In this document: positions 7,089-59,333 of the stretch, in pieces | How the letters are laid out: the number at the start of each line of letters is the position of its first letter | Numbering within the stretch: position 1 is the stretch's first letter | IMG/VR virus record: IMGVR_UViG_3300028025_002039 | Coordinates: 1 to 61,230 of that record | Reading direction: 5' to 3' (one strand) | Source: a virus | DNA: 61,230 nucleotides | Position numbers and translations under genes: made by a program | Notes under the pieces: model-generated | What the model was told of the DNA's origin: nothing | Databases searched by the model: none | The model's input: only the letters and a program-made list of their open reading frames with translations

Positions 7089-10000
7089 ATGGCTGATATC
7101 GAAACCAATGTAAATATAAATATAGATACGTCAGATGCTCTGTCGCAACTAAAACTTTTACAACAGCAGATATCAGCCTTTCAGCAAGCAATGAAGAATG
7201 CTGGTGCAGCCAACGCTCAAGCAGCAGCCCAGATGCAATCAAACCTAGTAAATTCAATTAATGCTACTGGGAAATTTAGAGCAAATATACAAACAATTAA
7301 AACAACTGCCGAATCTTTTACAGAATCGCTTGAAAAAAACAAGATGTCTATTGGCGAATACTTTCGCTACGCAGGTGGGGCATCCAAGACTTTTGGTAAG
7401 TTGTTCAAGTCTGAGTTTGAAACAATCAATCAGGTTGCTCGTGAACGAGTAAAGGAACTACAGACACAATACATTAAACTTGGTAGAGATGCCAACGGTG
7501 CAATGAAAGCAATTTCTGTAAGACCGCTATCTCTTGACATGGAAAGTCTGGCAGTAAAAACCCAACTGGCAGCACAAAGACAGCAACTGTTTAACCAGTT
7601 GATGAAACAGGGTTCAACTCAACTTCTAAACTTCGGTAAGAATACACAATGGGCTGGTCGTCAGTTGATGGTTGGTTTTACCATTCCACTTACCCTTATG
7701 GGTTCTGCTGCTGCCAAAGCATACATGGAAATTGAAAAGGCTTCCATTTCCTTCAAGCGTGTTTATGGTGACATCAACACAACAGCAGGTGAAACCGAAA
7801 AGATGGTTAAGCAGGTTCAGGCTCTTGCCAGCGAATTTACCAAGTATGGTCTAGCAGTTGCAGATACTATGGACATGGCAGCCAAGGCTGCTGCTATGGG
7901 TAAGACTGGGGTAGACCTACTAGCACAGATTGACCAAGCAGCAAAACTATCTGTATTGGGTAACGTAGACCAGGCACAAGCCCTAGAAACAACCATCTCT
8001 CTAACAAATGCTTTTAGAGTCTCTACAGATGAACTAGCATCAAGCGTAGACTTCTTGAACGCAGTAGAAAACCAAACCGTAGTTAGCATTGAAGACCTTA
8101 CGATTGCTATTCCAAAAGCAGCCCCAGTTGTTCAGCAACTTGGTGGAGACGTAAAGGACCTAACGTTCTTCCTTACAGCAATGAAGGAAGGTGGCATTAA
8201 CGCATCGGAAGGTGCTAACGCTCTAAAGTCTGGTCTTGCGTCTATGATTAACCCAACTAAAAAGGCTTCCGACTTCCTCGCAACATTTGGAGTTAACATC
8301 CAAGCAATTGTTGAGGGCAACAAGGGCGACATCAAGCAAACAGTTATTGACTTCGCTAGAGCACTTGATACCCTTGACCCACTAAACCGTGCTCGTGCAA
8401 TTGAGCAGATGTTTGGTAAGTTCCAGTTCTCACGTCTATCAACATTGTTCCAAAACGTTATTGCCGAGGGTAGCCAAGCAACCAAGGTAGCAGGACTAGC
8501 AAACCAGACAGCAGAAGAACTAGCAGTGCTATCCGAACGAGAATTGAAAAAAGTCTCTGACTCACCAATGTTTAAGTTCCAGAAGTCTATCGAACAGATG
8601 CAAGCAAAACTTGCACCAGTTGGTGAAGCCTTCCTAAAGGCTGTTACTCCAATTATCGAATTCGTTACAAAGATTCTAGATGGATTTAATAACCTTAGTA
8701 GCGGAACCAAAAGTTTTATAACCATTCTTGTAACCGCTGTTGCAGGTATTGGTCCAATCTTGCTAATGACCTTTGGTCTTATTGCTAACGGTGTAGCCAA
8801 CGTAATGAAGTTGTTTACCAACATGAAGTCTTTCATTAATAAAACAACTAAGCCTTCAGACATGCTAGGTGAACAAACTGAATACATGAACACTGAGCAA
8901 CTTAAGGCAGCAGCAGTAGCAGCATCTCTTGACCAAGCACACGCAAAACTAAAGCAAACTTTCGATGCTGAAAGAGGTGCAATTGAACAACTAACTCAGG
9001 CATATCGTAACGCTGTCAACGCACAACAAGCCTTTACTGGTGTTCCTGGAGTTCCTGTAGGCGACGCTAATGCTATGACACCAAAGAAGTATGCCAAGGG
9101 TGTCTCTATGGTTCCTGGTCCAAAGGGTGCAGGAGACATTGTTCCAGCCCTACTATCCCCAGGTGAAGCAGTTATTCCTGCAAAACATGCACAGAAGTAT
9201 GCACCAGTAATTGCTGGTATGGTTGCTGGAAACCTTCCAGGATTTGAGAACGGAACCACTGGCGTAGGAATGCGTCAAAGCGTTTACGGACCAATGACGC
9301 TAAAGCAGACAGAAGGTCTTGCAAGAACTGGTGTCCAACTAAAAGACATTAGCGAGGAGGTTATGGCTGGTCCATATGCAAACGTCCCACCAACTGATTT
9401 CGGTACACAGATTTCTCCAACATCTGGTCACTCATTCCCTGCATTTGAAGTAGGTGGAATTTACCAGAAGCCAGACGGCACAAAGGTATTTGTTAAGCCA
9501 CAGATTGACCTAACTGGTGCAATGGCTGAAGTTCGTGGTACGGAGATTGCTCGCAGTGTTCATGGTCTAGTTGCTCCTAAGCAAGAAATCCGTGTAATGA
9601 TGGACCCAACAGACCCAGAGCGAAAGCGTAGATTCCTTGTTCTTGAATCAGCACTTGATGAAAGAATTGCAAACGTTCCAACTAAGTTTAGCAACAATGA
9701 GTACTTTACACAATTGGTTGCTTCACTTCTTCGTGGAGACAAAGACCTTGGTATTGGAAACCTAGGAGGCAATATCCTAGCCGATGTTGGTCCTGCTGGT
9801 GTGTTTGGCAGGGCATCTGGAAAACGTGCTCTGGGTAGTGCTGTTAACTCTATGGAAGAACAAGCCATCATTAACCTTCTTGGTGTAAAGGGTGGTGCTA
9901 AGAGATTCTTTGCAGAAGCAACTGCTGAACAAATTTCTAAGATGACTCCTGGAGAATACAATGCAGCAATGCAAGCAGAAATGCAAAGAGTTGCTCCTAA

Positions 10001-45844: not shown

Positions 45845-46066
45845 ATGTTAATTAAATCACTAGAACAAATGGAGACCATTGTAGATAACAATGAGTCGCT
45901 ATCGTGGGATGGCTGGACTGTGCTTGAGGCGAAGAAGTCGCCAACAGCATGGATGCAACCCAATGCCAAGTTCATCAAGCATGAGTGGCACACCGTCAAT
46001 CGATTTGACATTACTGAAAGCGGTTGGGATATCCCAGCCAAGTTAGTGAAGAAGAATGGCGAATGA
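45845..46066 (+). CDS. Small protein of unknown function
   Basis: This 73-residue protein contains several Trp residues (LSWDGWTVLEAK, KHEWHTVNRF, SGWDIPAKL). ATG 45845 is preferred; GTG 45836 is possible. It overlaps the WhiB-like gene by 11 bp, so the two are probably co-translated. It follows a 75-bp gap holding a short hairpin (CAACCA/TGGTTG at 45785-45804). Confidence 0.55.
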   Translation: MLIKSLEQMETIVDNNESLSWDGWTVLEAKKSPTAWMQPNAKFIKHEWHTVNRFDITESGWDIPAKLVKKNGE

Positions 46067-46346
46067 CAAGAACTGGAGAGAGTCTGCCAAGTGTGACGGC
46101 TGGGACACCAATCTCTTCTTTGACAAGTATGAAGAAGATGTCGAACTAAGAAAAGATATCGATGAATTCTGTTCCACCTGTCCTGTGATGCGTCAGTGCT
46201 TTGCAGTTGGGGTATCAACCAAACAGGTCGGAGTATGGGGCGGAGTCTATCTAGATAATGGTAAAATATCTAGAGAGTTTAATAGACACAAAACAAAAGA
46301 AGCCTGGGCTAACACCTGGTCCGATTTAACAATAGATAAGGAATAA
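46056..46346 (+). CDS. WhiB-family iron-sulphur regulator
   Basis: This 96-residue protein has the four cysteines of WhiB proteins (Cys13, Cys39, Cys42, Cys48; C-x25-C-x2-C-x5-C) and the turn GVWGGVY (59-65). A basic tail follows (REFNRHKTKEAW). WhiB proteins bind a 4Fe-4S cluster and contact the main sigma factor; the family is confined to Actinobacteria and their phages. In mycobacteriophage TM4 a WhiB homologue inhibits host WhiB2 and excludes superinfection. A role in reprogramming host transcription is likely here. Confidence 0.88.
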   Translation: MANDKNWRESAKCDGWDTNLFFDKYEEDVELRKDIDEFCSTCPVMRQCFAVGVSTKQVGVWGGVYLDNGKISREFNRHKTKEAWANTWSDLTIDKE

Positions 46347-55148: not shown

Positions 55149-55315
55149 AGAAAGCAAAACTCAATGTCGTAAAGAGACATTGGATACAGATTGGTGAAGA
55201 GCGTGAGAGAGAGCGTATCATTCACCTGCTAGAAGAGATGTATAACGACAAGAGCGGTATTAATCTAAAGGGTGCGTTAGCACTACTGAGAGGCAAGTAT
55301 GGTAATCTTAAGTAA
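55136..55315 (+). CDS. Small charged protein
   Basis: This 59-residue protein has a helix very rich in Glu and Arg (GEERERERIIHLLEEMY) and a short basic end (LRGKYGNLK). It overlaps the previous gene by 13 bp and the cobalamin adenosyltransferase by 17 bp. Function unknown. Confidence 0.55.
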   Translation: MGFVEKAKLNVVKRHWIQIGEERERERIIHLLEEMYNDKSGINLKGALALLRGKYGNLK

Positions 55316-55889
55316 AATCTATACAAAGACTGGCGACAAAGGAACTACAGCCCTTGGAGATAATTCCAGGGTATCTAAGACTGACCCACTAATTGAAGCA
55401 TATTCTACAGTAGATGAAGCAAACGCTGCTATTGGTATGATACTTGCTTTCGGCACTTATGGGAACAGTGGGCACATTGTTTTGACTAGACTACAGAATG
55501 AATTGTTTGATGTAGGTGCAGACCTATGCACACCATACACCGAAGGTGATGGCAAACTGAGAGTAACAGATAAGATGGTTACCAATCTTGAGTTAGATAT
55601 AGACTTATACAATGCAACTCTGGAACCTTTAAGGTCGTTCGTAATGCCTGGAGGCAATCAAACGTCAGCCCTGTTCCACGTTGCTAGAACAATTGTTCGA
55701 CGTGCAGAACGCAGGGTATGGAATGTAACTGGAAGAGAAGTAAATCCTCTAGTAGCACAATACCTAAACAGGCTATCAGACCTGATGTTCGTAATGGCTA
55801 GATTCTACAATGAGAACGAAGTGCTATGGAATCCAGGTGGAGAAAAACATCCTCCTAAGCGTTTCAGAGACATAGGTAATGCTGAATGA
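55299..55889 (+). CDS. PduO-type ATP:cob(I)alamin adenosyltransferase
   Basis: This 196-residue enzyme transfers the adenosyl group of ATP to cob(I)alamin, making adenosylcobalamin. All landmarks of the PduO family are present: KIYTKTGDKGTTALGD (6-21, ATP loop), DVGADL (71-76), FVMPGG (114-119), RTIVRRAERR (130-139) and YLNRLSDLMFVMAR (155-168). Length is usual for the family. It starts inside the upstream gene and ends in an ATGA overlap. B12-dependent ribonucleotide reductase or methylmalonyl-CoA mutase would use the product; neither gene is in the window. Confidence 0.9.
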   Translation: MVILSKIYTKTGDKGTTALGDNSRVSKTDPLIEAYSTVDEANAAIGMILAFGTYGNSGHIVLTRLQNELFDVGADLCTPYTEGDGKLRVTDKMVTNLELDIDLYNATLEPLRSFVMPGGNQTSALFHVARTIVRRAERRVWNVTGREVNPLVAQYLNRLSDLMFVMARFYNENEVLWNPGGEKHPPKRFRDIGNAE

Positions 55890-56107
55890 TTAACTTTGAG
55901 AACAACATGCTGGTACTAAACAATGTGTTCAGCAAAGAGGATGTAAATCAAATCAATGCGTATACAGACTATGTTCGTAATGAAGAGCGTGAACGTCTTA
56001 TCAAGGTGCTATTTGAGTATGGCACTATGAACTACATATCAGAGCAAGTCTATGCTGACTTGGTAGAAGTTATAAAAAATTCGGGGCATACAAAAGATGC
56101 TTCGTAA
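55886..56107 (+). CDS. Small protein of unknown function
   Basis: This 73-residue protein starts in an ATGA overlap with the adenosyltransferase. It is helical, with Arg/Glu repeats (DYVRNEERERLIKVL). Its TAA stop lies inside the first TTCGTAAT element (56101-56108). Confidence 0.55.
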   Translation: MINFENNMLVLNNVFSKEDVNQINAYTDYVRNEERERLIKVLFEYGTMNYISEQVYADLVEVIKNSGHTKDAS

Positions 56108-56131
56108 TCCCTAGTAGAAAGAATACACCTA

Positions 56132-56284
56132 ATGCAATTACACTTTAAACACTTTAAGTTGATATCAGCACCTAAGCCATATGGGTTTAGTTGGATATCC
56201 ACAAAGGAGATAAAGGGCTTTAAGTTCAATACGCCAAAACACCTATTCGGCTTTGGAATTTCCTTCCATACCCTTGAAAAATAG
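56132..56284 (+). CDS. Short Phe/Lys-rich protein
   Basis: This 50-residue frame is rich in Phe, Lys, His and Gly (MQLHFKHFKLISAPKPYGF ... FGFGISFHTLEK). The ribosome binding site is weak (GTAGAAAG). Clear periodicity and position right after a gene favour a real protein, but its 3' end runs into the origin-like region and it could be fortuitous. Confidence 0.4.
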   Translation: MQLHFKHFKLISAPKPYGFSWISTKEIKGFKFNTPKHLFGFGISFHTLEK

Positions 56285-56287
56285 CAC

Positions 56288-56320
56288 TTATACACATACT
56301 TATCCACAGGTTTATCCACA
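56288..56320 (+). repeat. Three DnaA boxes in 12-bp phase
   Basis: TTATACACA (56288-56296), TTATCCACA (56300-56308) and TTATCCACA (56312-56320) all match TTATNCACA and start exactly 12 bp apart in the same orientation. A weaker box of opposite orientation, TTATCAACA, is read from the minus strand at 56333-56341. Confidence 0.75.
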
Positions 56321-56406
56321 GATATAACTTACTGTTGATAACTGTTTTCATTAAGGATATGGATTTTAAATAAGATAGTGTGTAATGGAGCAAATCACTA
56401 ATAGGC

Positions 56407-56777
56407 TTCGTAATCATTTCCCCAAATCCCCATATCGTTATAAAATTGTTATGCCCCATAGCCCCTATATATCCCTATTAAAATACATTAAAATATGGGG
56501 AAAAATGTGGCTATTCGTAATCCTTTTTGAGAATAATTATCAATAATAATATAAAAACATATATAAAATCAGGGAAAAAATATACACGTTCGTAATACAT
56601 GTATAGTGTATATACTACTAGGGAGAATAAAGACTGTCTTCGTAATACCCCCAAAACTTCTGGCGATTTTTTTAGGTCCTTCGTAATACCTTTTTATGTT
56701 AGCGTATCCTGATAAGCATCTTGGGGAAAAATACATGCCTTCGTAATATCTGGGAAAAAATTTTTGGGGTTCGTAAT
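56407..56777 (+). repeat. TTCGTAAT module array, cluster 1
   Basis: TTCGTAAT occurs in one orientation at 56407, 56514, 56589, 56639, 56680, 56740 and 56770, with another copy at 56101. Most copies are preceded by a run such as GGGGAAAAATA starting 16-18 nt upstream. Spacing between copies is 30-107 bp. Nothing is encoded here. Confidence 0.75.
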
Positions 56778-56868
56778 CCCTTATAATGACAAATAATTTT
56801 ATTACAAATTTTGCCCAAATCGCATATAAGATAAATAGTTTTATTGGACATATCCAGAAAATTGGGTA

Positions 56869-56897
56869 TTGACAATGTCGGTGGTATACCTTATAAT
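56869..56897 (+). promoter_or_regulatory. Sigma70-type promoter, predicted leaderless start
   Basis: TTGACA (56869-56874), 17-nt spacer, TATAAT (56892-56897), then 6 nt to the ATG at 56904. It borders the origin-like region. Confidence 0.8.
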
Positions 56898-56903
56898 GGG
56901 GGT

Positions 56904-57134
56904 ATGACAAAACAATATGTAGAAAAATCAACAAAGGTATCAGACGTAGTAGCGTGGGAAGAGTTGTATAACTCTGATAAGGCTAGAGTTTACGAAGCGT
57001 CTAACTACCGTGACTATTACCGAGTAAAGACTAGTAAGACTACTAAGTATTTCAAAGGTGAGAGTGCATGGATGAACGTGCAGCGATATGTTGTAGACCA
57101 GGGTGACTTCGGAGGGTATGGTATCTTCCGATGA
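56904..57134 (+). CDS. Small Tyr-rich protein of unknown function
   Basis: This 76-residue protein is rich in Tyr, Lys and Val (VYEASNYRDYYRVKTSKTTK). It is the first gene right of the origin-like region and is read from a consensus promoter without a leader. It overlaps the next gene by four bases. No family recognised. Confidence 0.6.
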   Translation: MTKQYVEKSTKVSDVVAWEELYNSDKARVYEASNYRDYYRVKTSKTTKYFKGESAWMNVQRYVVDQGDFGGYGIFR

Positions 57135-57346
57135 TAAATCCTAAAGCAATTGCAGATACATCCATTCCTATCCATGACCTAGTACATGGTGAGTTGAAGA
57201 CCCTTATGCTATACGCTGAAGAGCAGATAGAAGCGTCGGACACAGACCTTGCTAACTATTGGAATGGAAGACTAGACGGATATGCTGATGTATATAAACT
57301 AATATACGACCTAATATTTATCCGTGAAGACCTTGACAAGCAGTAG
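57131..57346 (+). CDS. Small acidic helical protein
   Basis: This 71-residue protein has helices with LVHGELKTLMLYAEEQIEA and YWNGRLDGYADVYKLIYDLI. It is coupled to the previous gene by overlap. The -35 box of the next promoter lies in its last codons. Function unknown. Confidence 0.55.
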   Translation: MINPKAIADTSIPIHDLVHGELKTLMLYAEEQIEASDTDLANYWNGRLDGYADVYKLIYDLIFIREDLDKQ

Positions 57347-57361
57347 CCCATACTGTATAAT
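57333..57361 (+). promoter_or_regulatory. Sigma70-type promoter
   Basis: TTGACA (57333-57338), 17-nt spacer, TATAAT (57356-57361), about 32 nt before the ATG at 57393. Confidence 0.8.
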
Positions 57362-57392
57362 AGATATATAACCCTTAGAGAAAGAGAACCCC

Positions 57393-57599
57393 ATGGCAAC
57401 ATTTGATGTAACCGTATCCTTTCACTTCGACACTGAGTATCAGGTAGAAGCAGATAGTTACGAAGAAGCAGAAGAAAAAGCAATGCGTGAAGCAGAAGAG
57501 TGGAAACCTTATTCATCTGAATTAGGATATACTCACGACTGGTATTCAGTAGACATTGAGAATGTACACACTAACGATGAGTTGGATGAAGATGAGTAA
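57393..57599 (+). CDS. Small acidic beta-alpha protein (DpnD-like fold)
   Basis: This 68-residue protein has two strands (FDVTVSFHFDTEYQVEADS) followed by a helix (YEEAEEKAMREAEEW) and an acidic end. A gene with the same plan lies on the minus strand at 59885 (YVQVQVCYDGEIEADSEEQA). Similar small proteins occur in many phages; the function is unknown. Confidence 0.6.
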   Translation: MATFDVTVSFHFDTEYQVEADSYEEAEEKAMREAEEWKPYSSELGYTHDWYSVDIENVHTNDELDEDE

Positions 57600-57831
57600 G
57601 GACCTAACCACAGAAGAGTGGGATGCAGAAATCGACATCCTTTATTCCTATGTTGATAAGTTTGTTAATGATGATTCAGAAGACTTCTCTACCCAGATTA
57701 TTAATCTTGGCAACCTTGCACATATGAAGGGGTGGCACGACGCTATCGCCATGGTATTAGATGTCAGTGGTGGGATGTATAATGGATACGATAACCAAAC
57801 CCTAGAAGAATTGAGACAACGAATTGTGTAA
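57592..57831 (+). CDS. Small acidic protein
   Basis: This 79-residue protein starts at ATG 57592, overlapping the previous stop by 8 bp. It has acidic helices (EEWDAEIDILYSYVDKFVN) and a Gly/Asn-rich end. Function unknown. Confidence 0.55.
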   Translation: MSKDLTTEEWDAEIDILYSYVDKFVNDDSEDFSTQIINLGNLAHMKGWHDAIAMVLDVSGGMYNGYDNQTLEELRQRIV

Positions 57832-58285
57832 TCATACTAAGATTGTTTGCCCTGAACATGACGGTGGCTTTGACTGTACCCCCTTTTGCAGACTATGCGA
57901 AGCAAATCAAGAGTTCTGCCCTTCGTGCGAACAGATGTCTAACGAACACTGGGAGAAGATTTATCTCCCTATGACTAATCATCTAACTAGTGAAGGTATC
58001 TCATACGAGACCTACGGTGATGAAGAAGACTATGTACGTCAGCAGGACGAGCGAAACGTCTGGACTGAAATGGATGGCGACAACGGTGTGTACATTGTAA
58101 ACGGTATGCATTATGTGAACCGCATTCAATACTACATCACTAACAAACCTTGGAATGAAGGTGACAACATCTGCATTACCGTATGCGAGTACATCGACTG
58201 CGATTGCTATGACGGTGATGTGGACCCTAAGAACAACTGCCCTGAGTGTGGCGGTACTGGCACAAAGACAGTGTGGGCAGACTAA
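57824..58285 (+). CDS. Cysteine-rich protein with DnaJ-type zinc finger
   Basis: This 153-residue protein starts with TTG 57824 inside the previous gene. The N-terminus has CPEHDGGFDCTPFCRLC and CPSC, and the C-terminus CDCYDGD followed by CPECGGTGTK, a motif of DnaJ zinc-finger repeats. At least two zinc sites are likely. The acidic middle contains many Tyr and Asp residues. Protein- or RNA-binding is plausible. Confidence 0.6.
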   Translation: MCNHTKIVCPEHDGGFDCTPFCRLCEANQEFCPSCEQMSNEHWEKIYLPMTNHLTSEGISYETYGDEEDYVRQQDERNVWTEMDGDNGVYIVNGMHYVNRIQYYITNKPWNEGDNICITVCEYIDCDCYDGDVDPKNNCPECGGTGTKTVWAD

Positions 58286-58665
58286 TGGTAAGAGAATGGA
58301 ATGAGAACATGCAAAAAGATTGGGACCTAAACATATTCTTCAGAGAGCATTACTCTGACGAAGACGGTACTACATGGGAGAACGTTATAACTATTAATCC
58401 TGTAGTTTATACATGGGACGGTGACCGCTCTGATAACTGGTACACTGACATCCTATTTACCACGACGTTTGCAGAGGCACGGTATCTGAGGAGCCAGTAT
58501 CCAGAAGAAGAGTACGGTACAGACTGGACAGATAGCCTACAGGGCTTCCTAGAGATTGCTCCGCCTAGGTTAAAGTCTTTGCTTGGGACCCTGCCTGGTG
58601 CGGATGAGACTGATGAGATTATTAAACTTGGTGGGTTGAGAGCACTCCCTGCCAATGACGGATAG
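58285..58665 (+). CDS. Protein of unknown function
   Basis: This 126-residue protein starts at ATG 58285 overlapping the previous stop. It is Trp/Asp-rich (NENMQKDWDLNIFFREHY; YTWDGDRSDNWYTDILF) with a helical C-terminal part. A hairpin follows, so it is probably last in its operon. Confidence 0.55.
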   Translation: MVREWNENMQKDWDLNIFFREHYSDEDGTTWENVITINPVVYTWDGDRSDNWYTDILFTTTFAEARYLRSQYPEEEYGTDWTDSLQGFLEIAPPRLKSLLGTLPGADETDEIIKLGGLRALPANDG

Positions 58666-58692
58666 GTTAGGGGTTTCCGATTCCGTCAAACT

Positions 58693-58729
58693 GTGGGGGG
58701 TATGAGTAATTGCTACTTGTATCCCCCAC
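58693..58729 (+). terminator. C/G-run hairpin, probable terminator
   Basis: GTGGGGG (58693-58699) pairs with CCCCCAC (58723-58729), extended by weaker pairs. There is no T run, so terminator strength is uncertain. Confidence 0.5.
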
Positions 58730-58736
58730 CACATTC

Positions 58737-58745
58737 TGGTATAAT
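58737..58745 (+). promoter_or_regulatory. Extended -10 promoter
   Basis: TGGTATAAT, 22 nt before the ATG at 58768. Confidence 0.55.
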
Positions 58746-58767
58746 GATAATAAGAGAATAGAGTAGT

Positions 58768-58968
58768 ATGAGAAAGAGTAATGAAGAAAAATTTGCGACA
58801 TTAGTTAGTAATTTTGTTAGTGATTTGAGATTTGACTTAGAACTAGCAGGAAAGTATTTGGCTTGGTATTTACCAAATGTAACATACCGAAGAATACTAA
58901 CAATCTTAGAAGCAATGAAACACGAAAGAGAAGGTAAGAGCAATGAGTATCACGACACAAGAGAGTAA
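58768..58968 (+). CDS. Small basic helical protein
   Basis: This 66-residue protein is helical with Lys/Arg-rich ends (RKSNEEKFATLVSNFVSDL; YRRILTILEAMKHEREGK). It overlaps the next gene by 26 bp. Function unknown. Confidence 0.55.
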   Translation: MRKSNEEKFATLVSNFVSDLRFDLELAGKYLAWYLPNVTYRRILTILEAMKHEREGKSNEYHDTRE

Positions 58969-59206
58969 GGCAGACATCCTGTCAGAACTATGGCTAGGCT
59001 ATAAGAACGACCAGAACTTTGAGGATTTCTTTTCCTACAATGATTTGGGTCTGCCTCTAGCCTATGCTATTTCGAACGGTATCGTAAAGGCAACAGAGCA
59101 GTCTAATAAATTCATAGATGAGACATTCTCCCTATTACTAGCATCACTAGAGATAGAAGACGAAGGCTATGATGGTCTTGATGATATCTTCCTAATGGCT
59201 GGCTAG
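58943..59206 (+). CDS. Small acidic protein
   Basis: This 87-residue protein has helices (KADILSELWLGYKN; FIDETFSLLLASLEI) and an acidic C-terminus. It is the last plus-strand gene before the second repeat cluster. Confidence 0.55.
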   Translation: MSITTQESKADILSELWLGYKNDQNFEDFFSYNDLGLPLAYAISNGIVKATEQSNKFIDETFSLLLASLEIEDEGYDGLDDIFLMAG

Positions 59207-59207
59207 A

Positions 59208-59333
59208 TTCAGGAAAAAATAAACAGTCTTCGTAATTAGTATCTGATACCTAGATAACCTGGGAAACATGTGTTCCTTCGTAATCGGTATCGGATATCTA
59301 ATTATCTGGGGAAAAATATACAGGGTTCGTAAT
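59208..59333 (+). repeat. TTCGTAAT module array, cluster 2
   Basis: TTCGTAAT occurs at 59229, 59277 and 59326, spaced 48 and 49 bp, each preceded by GGGAAA-type runs. The two full units are diverged direct repeats with palindromic cores (GTATCTGATAC; GATATC). The gap from 59207 to 59390 has no gene. A T6-GCCC-A6 palindrome (59367-59382) lies at its right end between convergent operons. Confidence 0.75.

What the first reader, a model, noticed from the sequence alone, without database searches (positions are those of the whole stretch)
56101..56777. Array of TTCGTAAT modules beside the DnaA boxes
Eight copies of an 8-mer in the same orientation in ~680 bp, seven of them in non-coding DNA, most with a GGGGAAAAATA-like run 16-18 nt upstream. 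The octamer also occurs in genes as Arg-Asn codons, but not with this flank. Options: iterons for a phage initiator, stoperator-like repressor sites, a partition site, or a family of small RNAs starting or ending at the octamer.
Basis: seen in the sequence. Interest (0 to 1): 0.82.

Follow-up and report, generated by a model that had tools for sequence, protein, structure and literature searches.

The report
Polar DNA-site array at phage genome end
A virus of freshwater bacteria carries a cluster of one-way 26-letter DNA sites beside the inferred end of its genome; related viruses, including laboratory Streptomyces phages, keep these sites in the same place and direction, and they probably bind a still unknown protein that stops gene reading from running into the early genes.

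Summary
TTCGTAAT occurs 16 times on the + strand and never on the - strand. Eight copies carry a GGGRAAAA run 15-18 nt upstream; shuffles give 0.017. The full module, GGGGAAAAATNNNNNNN(S)TTCGTAAT, recurs across a large group of phages related to the Streptomyces phage family Stanwilliamsviridae: 384 modules on one strand and 0 on the other in 87 (partly redundant) loci. In cellular genomes only scattered single chance hits appear.

Alignment to phages with sequenced ends puts the array at the left genome terminus: DnaA boxes, about 70 bp, inferred cut at 56387/56388, first octamer at +20, then the array. Loccivirinae keep variant modules beside DnaA boxes but about 6 kb from their terminus, often just after stop codons. 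That argues against a terminase site. Isolated copies flank leftward early promoters. No RNA hairpin is conserved.

Best reading: asymmetric sites for an unidentified phage protein that acts in a polar way on rightward transcription, like cluster A stoperators, insulating the terminal-repeat early genes. Binding and function are inferred, not shown. Rivals: origin iterons, early-promoter operators, packaging sites. I found no published description of the element.

The parts
56083..56108 (+). module 0 (GGGGCATACAAAAGATGC-TTCGTAAT), overlapping the stop codon of ORF 55886-56107; outside the inferred terminal repeat
   Evidence: counterparts in L129, L130, L131, L132, L102, L084 and G019
56132..56284 (+). 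small ORF (about 50 aa), probably the last rightward gene before the DnaA boxes
   Evidence: read from the sequence; surrounding DNA 56070-56463 is 81% identical in L129
56300..56308 (+). DnaA box TTATCCACA
   Evidence: aligned with boxes at about -94/-71 from the left terminus in Stanwilliamsviridae
56312..56320 (+). DnaA box TTATCCACA
56387..56388 (.). inferred left genome terminus (start of the direct terminal repeat), ...AGTGTGTAATG|GAGCA
   Evidence: alignment to the deposited termini of five Boydwoodruffvirinae records; ends mapped by read pile-up for BE1 phages including Jay2Jay, Mildred21 and Samisti12 (PMC5764925). Inferred for this phage.
56388..56414 (+). module 1: octamer at +20 from the inferred terminus, no GGGAAAA run
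56497..56521 (+). full module
56522..56580 (.). AT-rich stretch (84% AT in 56520-56580), possible unwinding element
56572..56596 (+). full module
56621..56646 (+). full module
56663..56687 (+). variant module (GGCGATTTTT...TTCGTAAT)
56723..56747 (+). full module
56752..56777 (+). full module
56862..59166 (.). gene segment inverted relative to the relatives compared; modules on both sides keep + orientation
   Evidence: blastn/tblastn against L128, L129, L131
56869..56897 (+). sigma-70-type promoter TTGACA-17-TATAAT of the inverted segment
58943..59206 (+). gene of an 87-aa all-helical acidic protein, the commonest neighbour of arrays
59212..59236 (+). full module, second array, 6 nt after the stop codon of 58943-59206
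59261..59284 (+). full module, second array
59308..59333 (+). full module, second array

Best explanation
The repeat is a roughly 26-bp asymmetric, bipartite DNA site (GGGRAAAAW at -17, about 9-10 nt, then STTCGTAAT) of a phage-specific regulatory system in relatives of Stanwilliamsviridae. An unidentified phage DNA-binding protein (inferred) occupies these sites. It acts in a polar way on rightward transcription, as cluster A repressors do at stoperators. The array lies where the long rightward gene block meets the leftward early genes of the direct terminal repeat. Single copies lie on the upstream side of leftward early promoters. In Loccivirinae, copies lie just after stop codons and at the edge of the DnaA-box region. 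Proposed effect: late rightward transcription is kept out of the early genes and of the origin/terminus region, and some early promoters may be modulated. Shown: the motif, its strict polarity, its locations, its conservation, and its position at the genome terminus of cultured relatives. Inferred: protein binding, identity of the protein, block of elongation.
For: Strict polarity: 384 modules on the majority strand, 0 on the other, in 87 partly redundant loci; 8:0 in the window. Bipartite spacing: gap 9-10 in 99 of 143 matches of a pattern that allows 6-12; GGG at -17..-15 in 59-70% of 182 non-redundant octamer sites. Phage-specific: the strict pattern hits 63 viral stretches, 48 of them with 2 or more modules, against 17 single hits in 257 Gb of cellular genomes. 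Non-coding: 201 of 241 against 101 of 241 random positions. In the 107-kb record G019 strong modules lie only at 8.4-13.9 kb, all on +. In six cultured Boydwoodruffvirinae the matches (45 forward, 0 reverse) lie in the terminal repeats except one. Wakanda copies follow gene ends in intergenic gaps, all on +; Annadreamy copies follow stop codons and two open its 1.5-kb DnaA-box gap. Isolated modules have a leftward promoter on the GGG side in 18 of 111, against 0, 4 and 3 for the three control arrangements. When the segment 56862-59166 became rightward, three modules follow its last gene. No conserved RNA pairing. Stoperators: asymmetric site, monomer with two DNA-binding domains, effect lost when reversed (PMC9283540).
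Against: No binding protein was identified, and no transcription data exist. Isolated copies at leftward promoters point against the local transcription, so a strictly syn-oriented rule is not met there. Module 0 lies between two rightward genes, not at the very end of the block. These look like lytic phages, so the purpose of a stoperator would differ from prophage silencing. The position right inside the terminus in Boydwoodruffvirinae and freshwater phages is not explained by transcription alone. The promoter-side statistic uses consensus matches only.
Confidence: 0.42

Rival explanations
1. Replication-origin iterons: an initiator binds the modules together with host DnaA at the nearby boxes and opens the AT-rich stretch.
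For: Only two DnaA boxes in the window, both here. Boxes are conserved beside the array in most relatives and at about -94/-71 in five cultured phages. AT-rich stretch within the array. Direct repeats on one strand. SPP1 origins are direct repeats plus a DUE (PMC6316719).
Against: Spacing is irregular (28 to more than 190 bp). Copies flank promoters kilobases away and are scattered over 47 kb in Wakanda. Loccivirinae DnaA-box gaps hold their own different repeats (GTTGAAcGTTCAAC), with the modules only at the edge.
Confidence: 0.2
2. Operators of an early-gene regulator: the protein mainly controls leftward early promoters in the terminal repeat, and the terminal array is a reservoir or looping partner.
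For: Leftward promoters on the GGG side of isolated modules, 18 of 111 against 0-4 in controls, octamer to -35 mostly 17-36 bp. The Boydwoodruffvirinae copy about 0.9 kb from the right end lies upstream of the leftward early operon.
Against: Promoter distance is not fixed. The large array is not at a promoter. Strict genome-wide polarity is not needed for such operators. Wakanda copies are mostly not at early promoters.
Confidence: 0.15
3. Packaging site (cosB/pac-like): the terminase small subunit binds the array next to the cut.
For: In five cultured relatives the terminal repeat starts at the conserved GTGTGTAATG| motif with the aligned module-1 position at about +20 and the array just inside (ends by read pile-up, PMC5764925).
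Against: Module 0 lies on the other side of the cut. Copies lie 3-12 kb away. In Annadreamy the copies and DnaA boxes lie about 6 kb from the start of the right terminal repeat, which has no array. Wakanda copies are scattered.
Confidence: 0.1
4. Promoters or an RNA element (small RNAs, processing sites, terminator hairpins).
For: Modules are co-oriented with the rightward genes; some Wakanda copies can form hairpins; T-rich +11..+15.
Against: Complementarity of flanks equals permuted controls in 152 sites. No gene follows most array copies. No Rfam match except tRNAs.
Confidence: 0.07

Closest known systems
Stoperators/operators of cluster A mycobacteriophages (L5, TipsytheTRex repressor)
   Same: Asymmetric DNA site; many copies in intergenic gaps and near early promoters; one orientation relative to a genome-wide transcription direction; consensus drifts between relatives (PMC9283540, PMC6550527).
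   Different: Module is about 26 bp and bipartite, against 13-14 bp. It is clustered at the terminal repeat rather than spread genome-wide (except Wakanda). Some copies oppose local transcription. No repressor is known; phages appear lytic.
Phage T5 injection stop signal in the terminal repeat
   Same: Repeat-rich DNA with DnaA boxes tied to long terminal repeats carrying pre-early genes (PMC13250531).
   Different: Here a defined polar module is repeated and there is no evidence on injection. Homology to T5 was not tested.
Phage SPP1 pac and lambda cosB terminase sites
   Same: Protein-binding sites next to the packaging cut (SPP1: PMC6316719; lambda cosB from general knowledge).
   Different: Modules occur on both sides of the inferred cut and kilobases away, and are separate from the terminus in Loccivirinae.
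Iteron origins (SPP1 oriL/oriR, iteron plasmids)
   Same: Direct repeats with DnaA boxes and an AT-rich stretch.
   Different: Irregular spacing, promoter-side and dispersed copies; Loccivirinae origin-like gaps use other repeats.

Membership tests
Cluster A stoperators | asymmetric site repeated in the genome | tested here: met
Cluster A stoperators | orientation follows the direction of local transcription | tested here: not met
   met for array and Loccivirinae copies; isolated copies in the leftward early region point against local transcription
Cluster A stoperators | located in intergenic gaps and early promoters | tested here: met
Cluster A stoperators | 13-14 bp consensus | tested here: not met
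   about 26 bp bipartite module
Cluster A stoperators | bound by an HTH plus Stoperator-domain repressor | not tested
   L5 record not held; no HTH family found among the candidate proteins scanned
Cluster A stoperators | binding blocks transcription elongation | not testable with these tools
   needs RNA or reporter assays
Iteron replication origin | DnaA boxes and AT-rich region next to direct repeats | tested here: met
Iteron replication origin | repeats regularly spaced and confined to the origin | tested here: not met
Iteron replication origin | replication starts there | not testable with these tools
   needs replication mapping
cosB/pac terminase site | adjacent to the packaging cut | tested here: inconclusive
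   met in Boydwoodruffvirinae and inferred in freshwater phages; not met in Annadreamy and Wakanda
cosB/pac terminase site | bound by terminase small subunit | not testable with these tools
   needs a binding assay
T5-type injection stop signal | repeats and DnaA boxes associated with a long terminal repeat | tested here: met
T5-type injection stop signal | DNA entry pauses there | not testable with these tools
   needs infection experiments

The most novel reading that the evidence does not exclude
A previously undescribed polar 26-bp element, kept across a whole family of large lytic actinobacterial phages, marks the border between late rightward transcription and the terminal-repeat early region. 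It is read by an unknown phage protein that stops RNA polymerase from one side only, a lytic-phage insulator beside both the genome terminus and an origin-like DnaA region.
Probability: 0.38. Interest if true: 0.72.

Novelty: new variant of a known kind. Interest (0 to 1): 0.6.

Why it matters
The element is present in phages that can be grown in laboratory Streptomyces, with known genome ends, so its function can be tested directly. It ties together the genome terminus, DnaA boxes, early promoters and a strictly one-way DNA site in a group of phages with few studied regulatory signals. If it blocks transcription from one side, it extends stoperator-like control from prophage immunity to lytic development. 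It also marks the array side of the terminal repeat in metagenomic contigs, where ends are otherwise invisible.

Tried and rejected
Chance AT-rich repeat: rejected. Host motif: rejected, since only scattered single hits occur in 257 Gb of cellular genomes, in unrelated taxa. Small RNA, hairpin or terminator: no pairing beyond permutation, no Rfam family. ECF-type promoter (GGGAAA/CGTAAT): the distance between the two boxes is a few bases too short by comparison with general knowledge, and most array copies precede no gene. Terminase site: first favoured because of the terminus alignment, then downgraded when Loccivirinae showed modules away from the terminus. The 87-aa neighbour as the binding protein: it is strongly acidic, and its confident all-helical model (pLDDT 93.6) gives only insignificant fold matches, many of them XRE/lambda-repressor-type (best E 0.93). 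No annotated phage has a tblastn match to it. Helical phasing of spacings: R = 0.34 at 10.5 bp, but loci are related, so no conclusion. Nucleotide search of the region in annotated phages: no match. Literature searches found no description of the element; only open-licence papers were searched.

Full report
OBSERVATION. The octamer TTCGTAAT occurs 16 times on the + strand of the window and never on the - strand. The eight copies of the finding are at the stated places, and seven lie in non-coding DNA. Counting an octamer with at least 6 of 7 matches to GGGAAAA at -17..-11 (allowing a shift of one), the window has 8 full modules on + and 0 on -. Dinucleotide shuffles of the window give 0.017 and shuffles of the two intergenic regions 0.0005.

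CONSERVATION. Gaps of 9 and 10 took 99 of 143 matches, and many loci carry 4-9 octamers in a short array. Over 182 non-redundant sites the consensus is GGG at -17..-15, an A-rich run, G or C at -1, the octamer, rarely T at +8, and T-rich +11..+15. A strict pattern finds 63 viral stretches, 48 with two or more modules, but only 17 single hits in 257 Gb of cellular genomes, spread over unrelated taxa. In 87 partly redundant loci with three or more modules, 384 are on the majority strand and none on the other. Modules avoid genes: 201 of 241 against 101 of 241 random positions.

WHICH PHAGE. DNA polymerase III alpha and terminase place the window with Streptomyces phages of Stanwilliamsviridae at about 54% amino-acid identity. 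No annotated phage matches the region at the nucleotide level. The low-GC actinobacterial host is an inference.

POSITION AT THE GENOME END. Jay2Jay has an 11,438-bp direct terminal repeat in its record. In Jay2Jay, Samisti12, Mildred21, Wofford and Daubenski the left end falls at the same motif, GTGTGTAATG| or close variants, with DnaA boxes near -94/-71. Mildred21 carries an octamer variant at +21. The authors of the BE1 phages defined ends by read pile-up (PMC5764925). The window aligns base for base: AGTGTGTAATG|GAGCAAATCACTAATAGGC-TTCGTAAT, boxes at 56300 and 56312, inferred terminus 56387/56388, octamer at +20. This is an inference for this phage, because reads were not available.

CULTURED RELATIVES. 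Boydwoodruffvirinae use the variant GGGAAATTTT...[AT]TCGTAAA. With up to two mismatches, six genomes give 45 forward and 0 reverse matches. All but one lie in the terminal repeats: within 700 bp of the left edge, and about 0.9-1 kb from the right edge. In the 107-kb record G019 the strong hits lie between 8.4 and 13.9 kb, with one weak hit at 20.5 kb and one weak in-gene hit at 2.3 kb, none on the other strand.

LOCCIVIRINAE SEPARATE THE MODULE FROM THE TERMINUS. Wakanda has seven copies (AATCCTGAGATTTT...TTCGTAAAG) between 65 and 113 kb, all forward, in gaps just after a gene end. Annadreamy has copies of the form CTCTGGGC...ACCATCGTAA at 116.4 and 118.2-118.5 kb; the last two open a 1.5-kb gap with DnaA boxes. 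Faust and Wakanda have similar gaps with variant octamers at the left edge. The gaps of Annadreamy and Faust hold other repeats (GTTGAAcGTTCAAC), more typical of origin iterons. The short terminal repeats of these phages (0.77-1.77 kb) start about 6 kb further on. So the module tracks the DnaA-box region and gene ends, not the packaging end.

EARLY PROMOTERS. Isolated modules have a leftward promoter-like site (10 of 12 matches or more) on their GGG side in 18 of 111 cases, against 0, 4 and 3 for the other three arrangements. Octamer to -35 distances are mostly 17-36 bp. The same arrangement exists in Jay2Jay near 10.5 kb (read).

THE FLIPPED SEGMENT. Window 56862-59166 is inverted relative to L128, L129 and L131. 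In those relatives the array sits between convergent gene blocks. In the window the flipped operon runs rightward and three modules begin 6 nt after its last stop codon, whereas L129 has one module at the corresponding place. All modules kept + orientation. This is one case, and an assembly error cannot be excluded.

MECHANISM. Shown: motif, polarity, placement, conservation. Not shown: binding, protein, effect. The flanks do not pair more than permuted ones in 152 sites, which favours a DNA site over an RNA signal. An asymmetric bipartite site with strict polarity in gaps after genes and at early promoters matches cluster A stoperators, where a monomer with two DNA-binding domains needs the correct site orientation to stop elongation (PMC9283540, PMC6550527). 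I therefore favour polar stopping of rightward transcription at the border of the early region, at about 0.42. Origin iterons 0.2, early operators 0.15, packaging 0.1, RNA or promoter elements 0.07. It is not filed as a stoperator: site length and local orientation at isolated copies differ, and no repressor is known.

CANDIDATE PROTEINS. Proteins conserved in all compared genomes include a WhiB-like factor (window 46056-46346) and several unknowns. None of the terminal-repeat proteins scanned has a Pfam match. The 87-aa neighbour (58943-59206) is found with 47 of the strict viral loci and folds as an all-helical protein. It is acidic and has no significant fold match. The binder remains open.

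Noticed in passing
window 56862-59166: Gene segment inverted relative to L128, L129 and L131, with modules on both sides all still in + orientation; the mechanism of inversion (or an assembly error) is unexplained.
   Followed up: partly
window 58943-59206: 87-aa acidic all-helical protein (motif YNDLGLPLAY) is the commonest neighbour of arrays, with no tblastn match among annotated phages and no significant fold match.
   Followed up: partly
window 55299-55889: Phage-borne cobalamin adenosyltransferase gene (PF01923, E 1e-58) upstream of the array; more than 130 viral stretches encode relatives.
   Followed up: partly
L267 2937-4421; L268 3177-4710; L269 5769-7140: Loccivirinae carry a 1.3-1.5 kb non-coding gap with DnaA boxes; in Annadreamy and Faust it also has dyad repeats GTTGAAcGTTCAAC and TTGTAGCAATACAA. 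Looks like a replication origin about 5-6 kb from the right terminal repeat.
   Followed up: partly
NC_029098.1 (L209/L210): The terminal repeat of the Jay2Jay record is 11,438 bp, while PMC5764925 Table 1 lists 10,778 bp, the same value as for Paradiddles.
   Followed up: no
window 46056-46346: WhiB-family transcription factor, conserved in all compared Stanwilliamsviridae and G019; a possible regulator.
   Followed up: no
L129 and L128 just after octamers at 7553 and 4575; L084 upstream of 2246: GC-rich double-hairpin-like sequence (ACCCTGGCtctGCCAGCCCTTCGGGGGTA, with CCACTTCGTGG in L084) within the array of some relatives; may be a structured element.
   Followed up: no
NC_042012 and related records, right end of the terminal repeat: Right terminus motif TATGGGCGCACTA...GCGAAGCATGTAT| is conserved in five Boydwoodruffvirinae; a similar TATGGGCGCACTA stretch lies near 750 bp in Loccivirinae left ends.
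   Followed up: no
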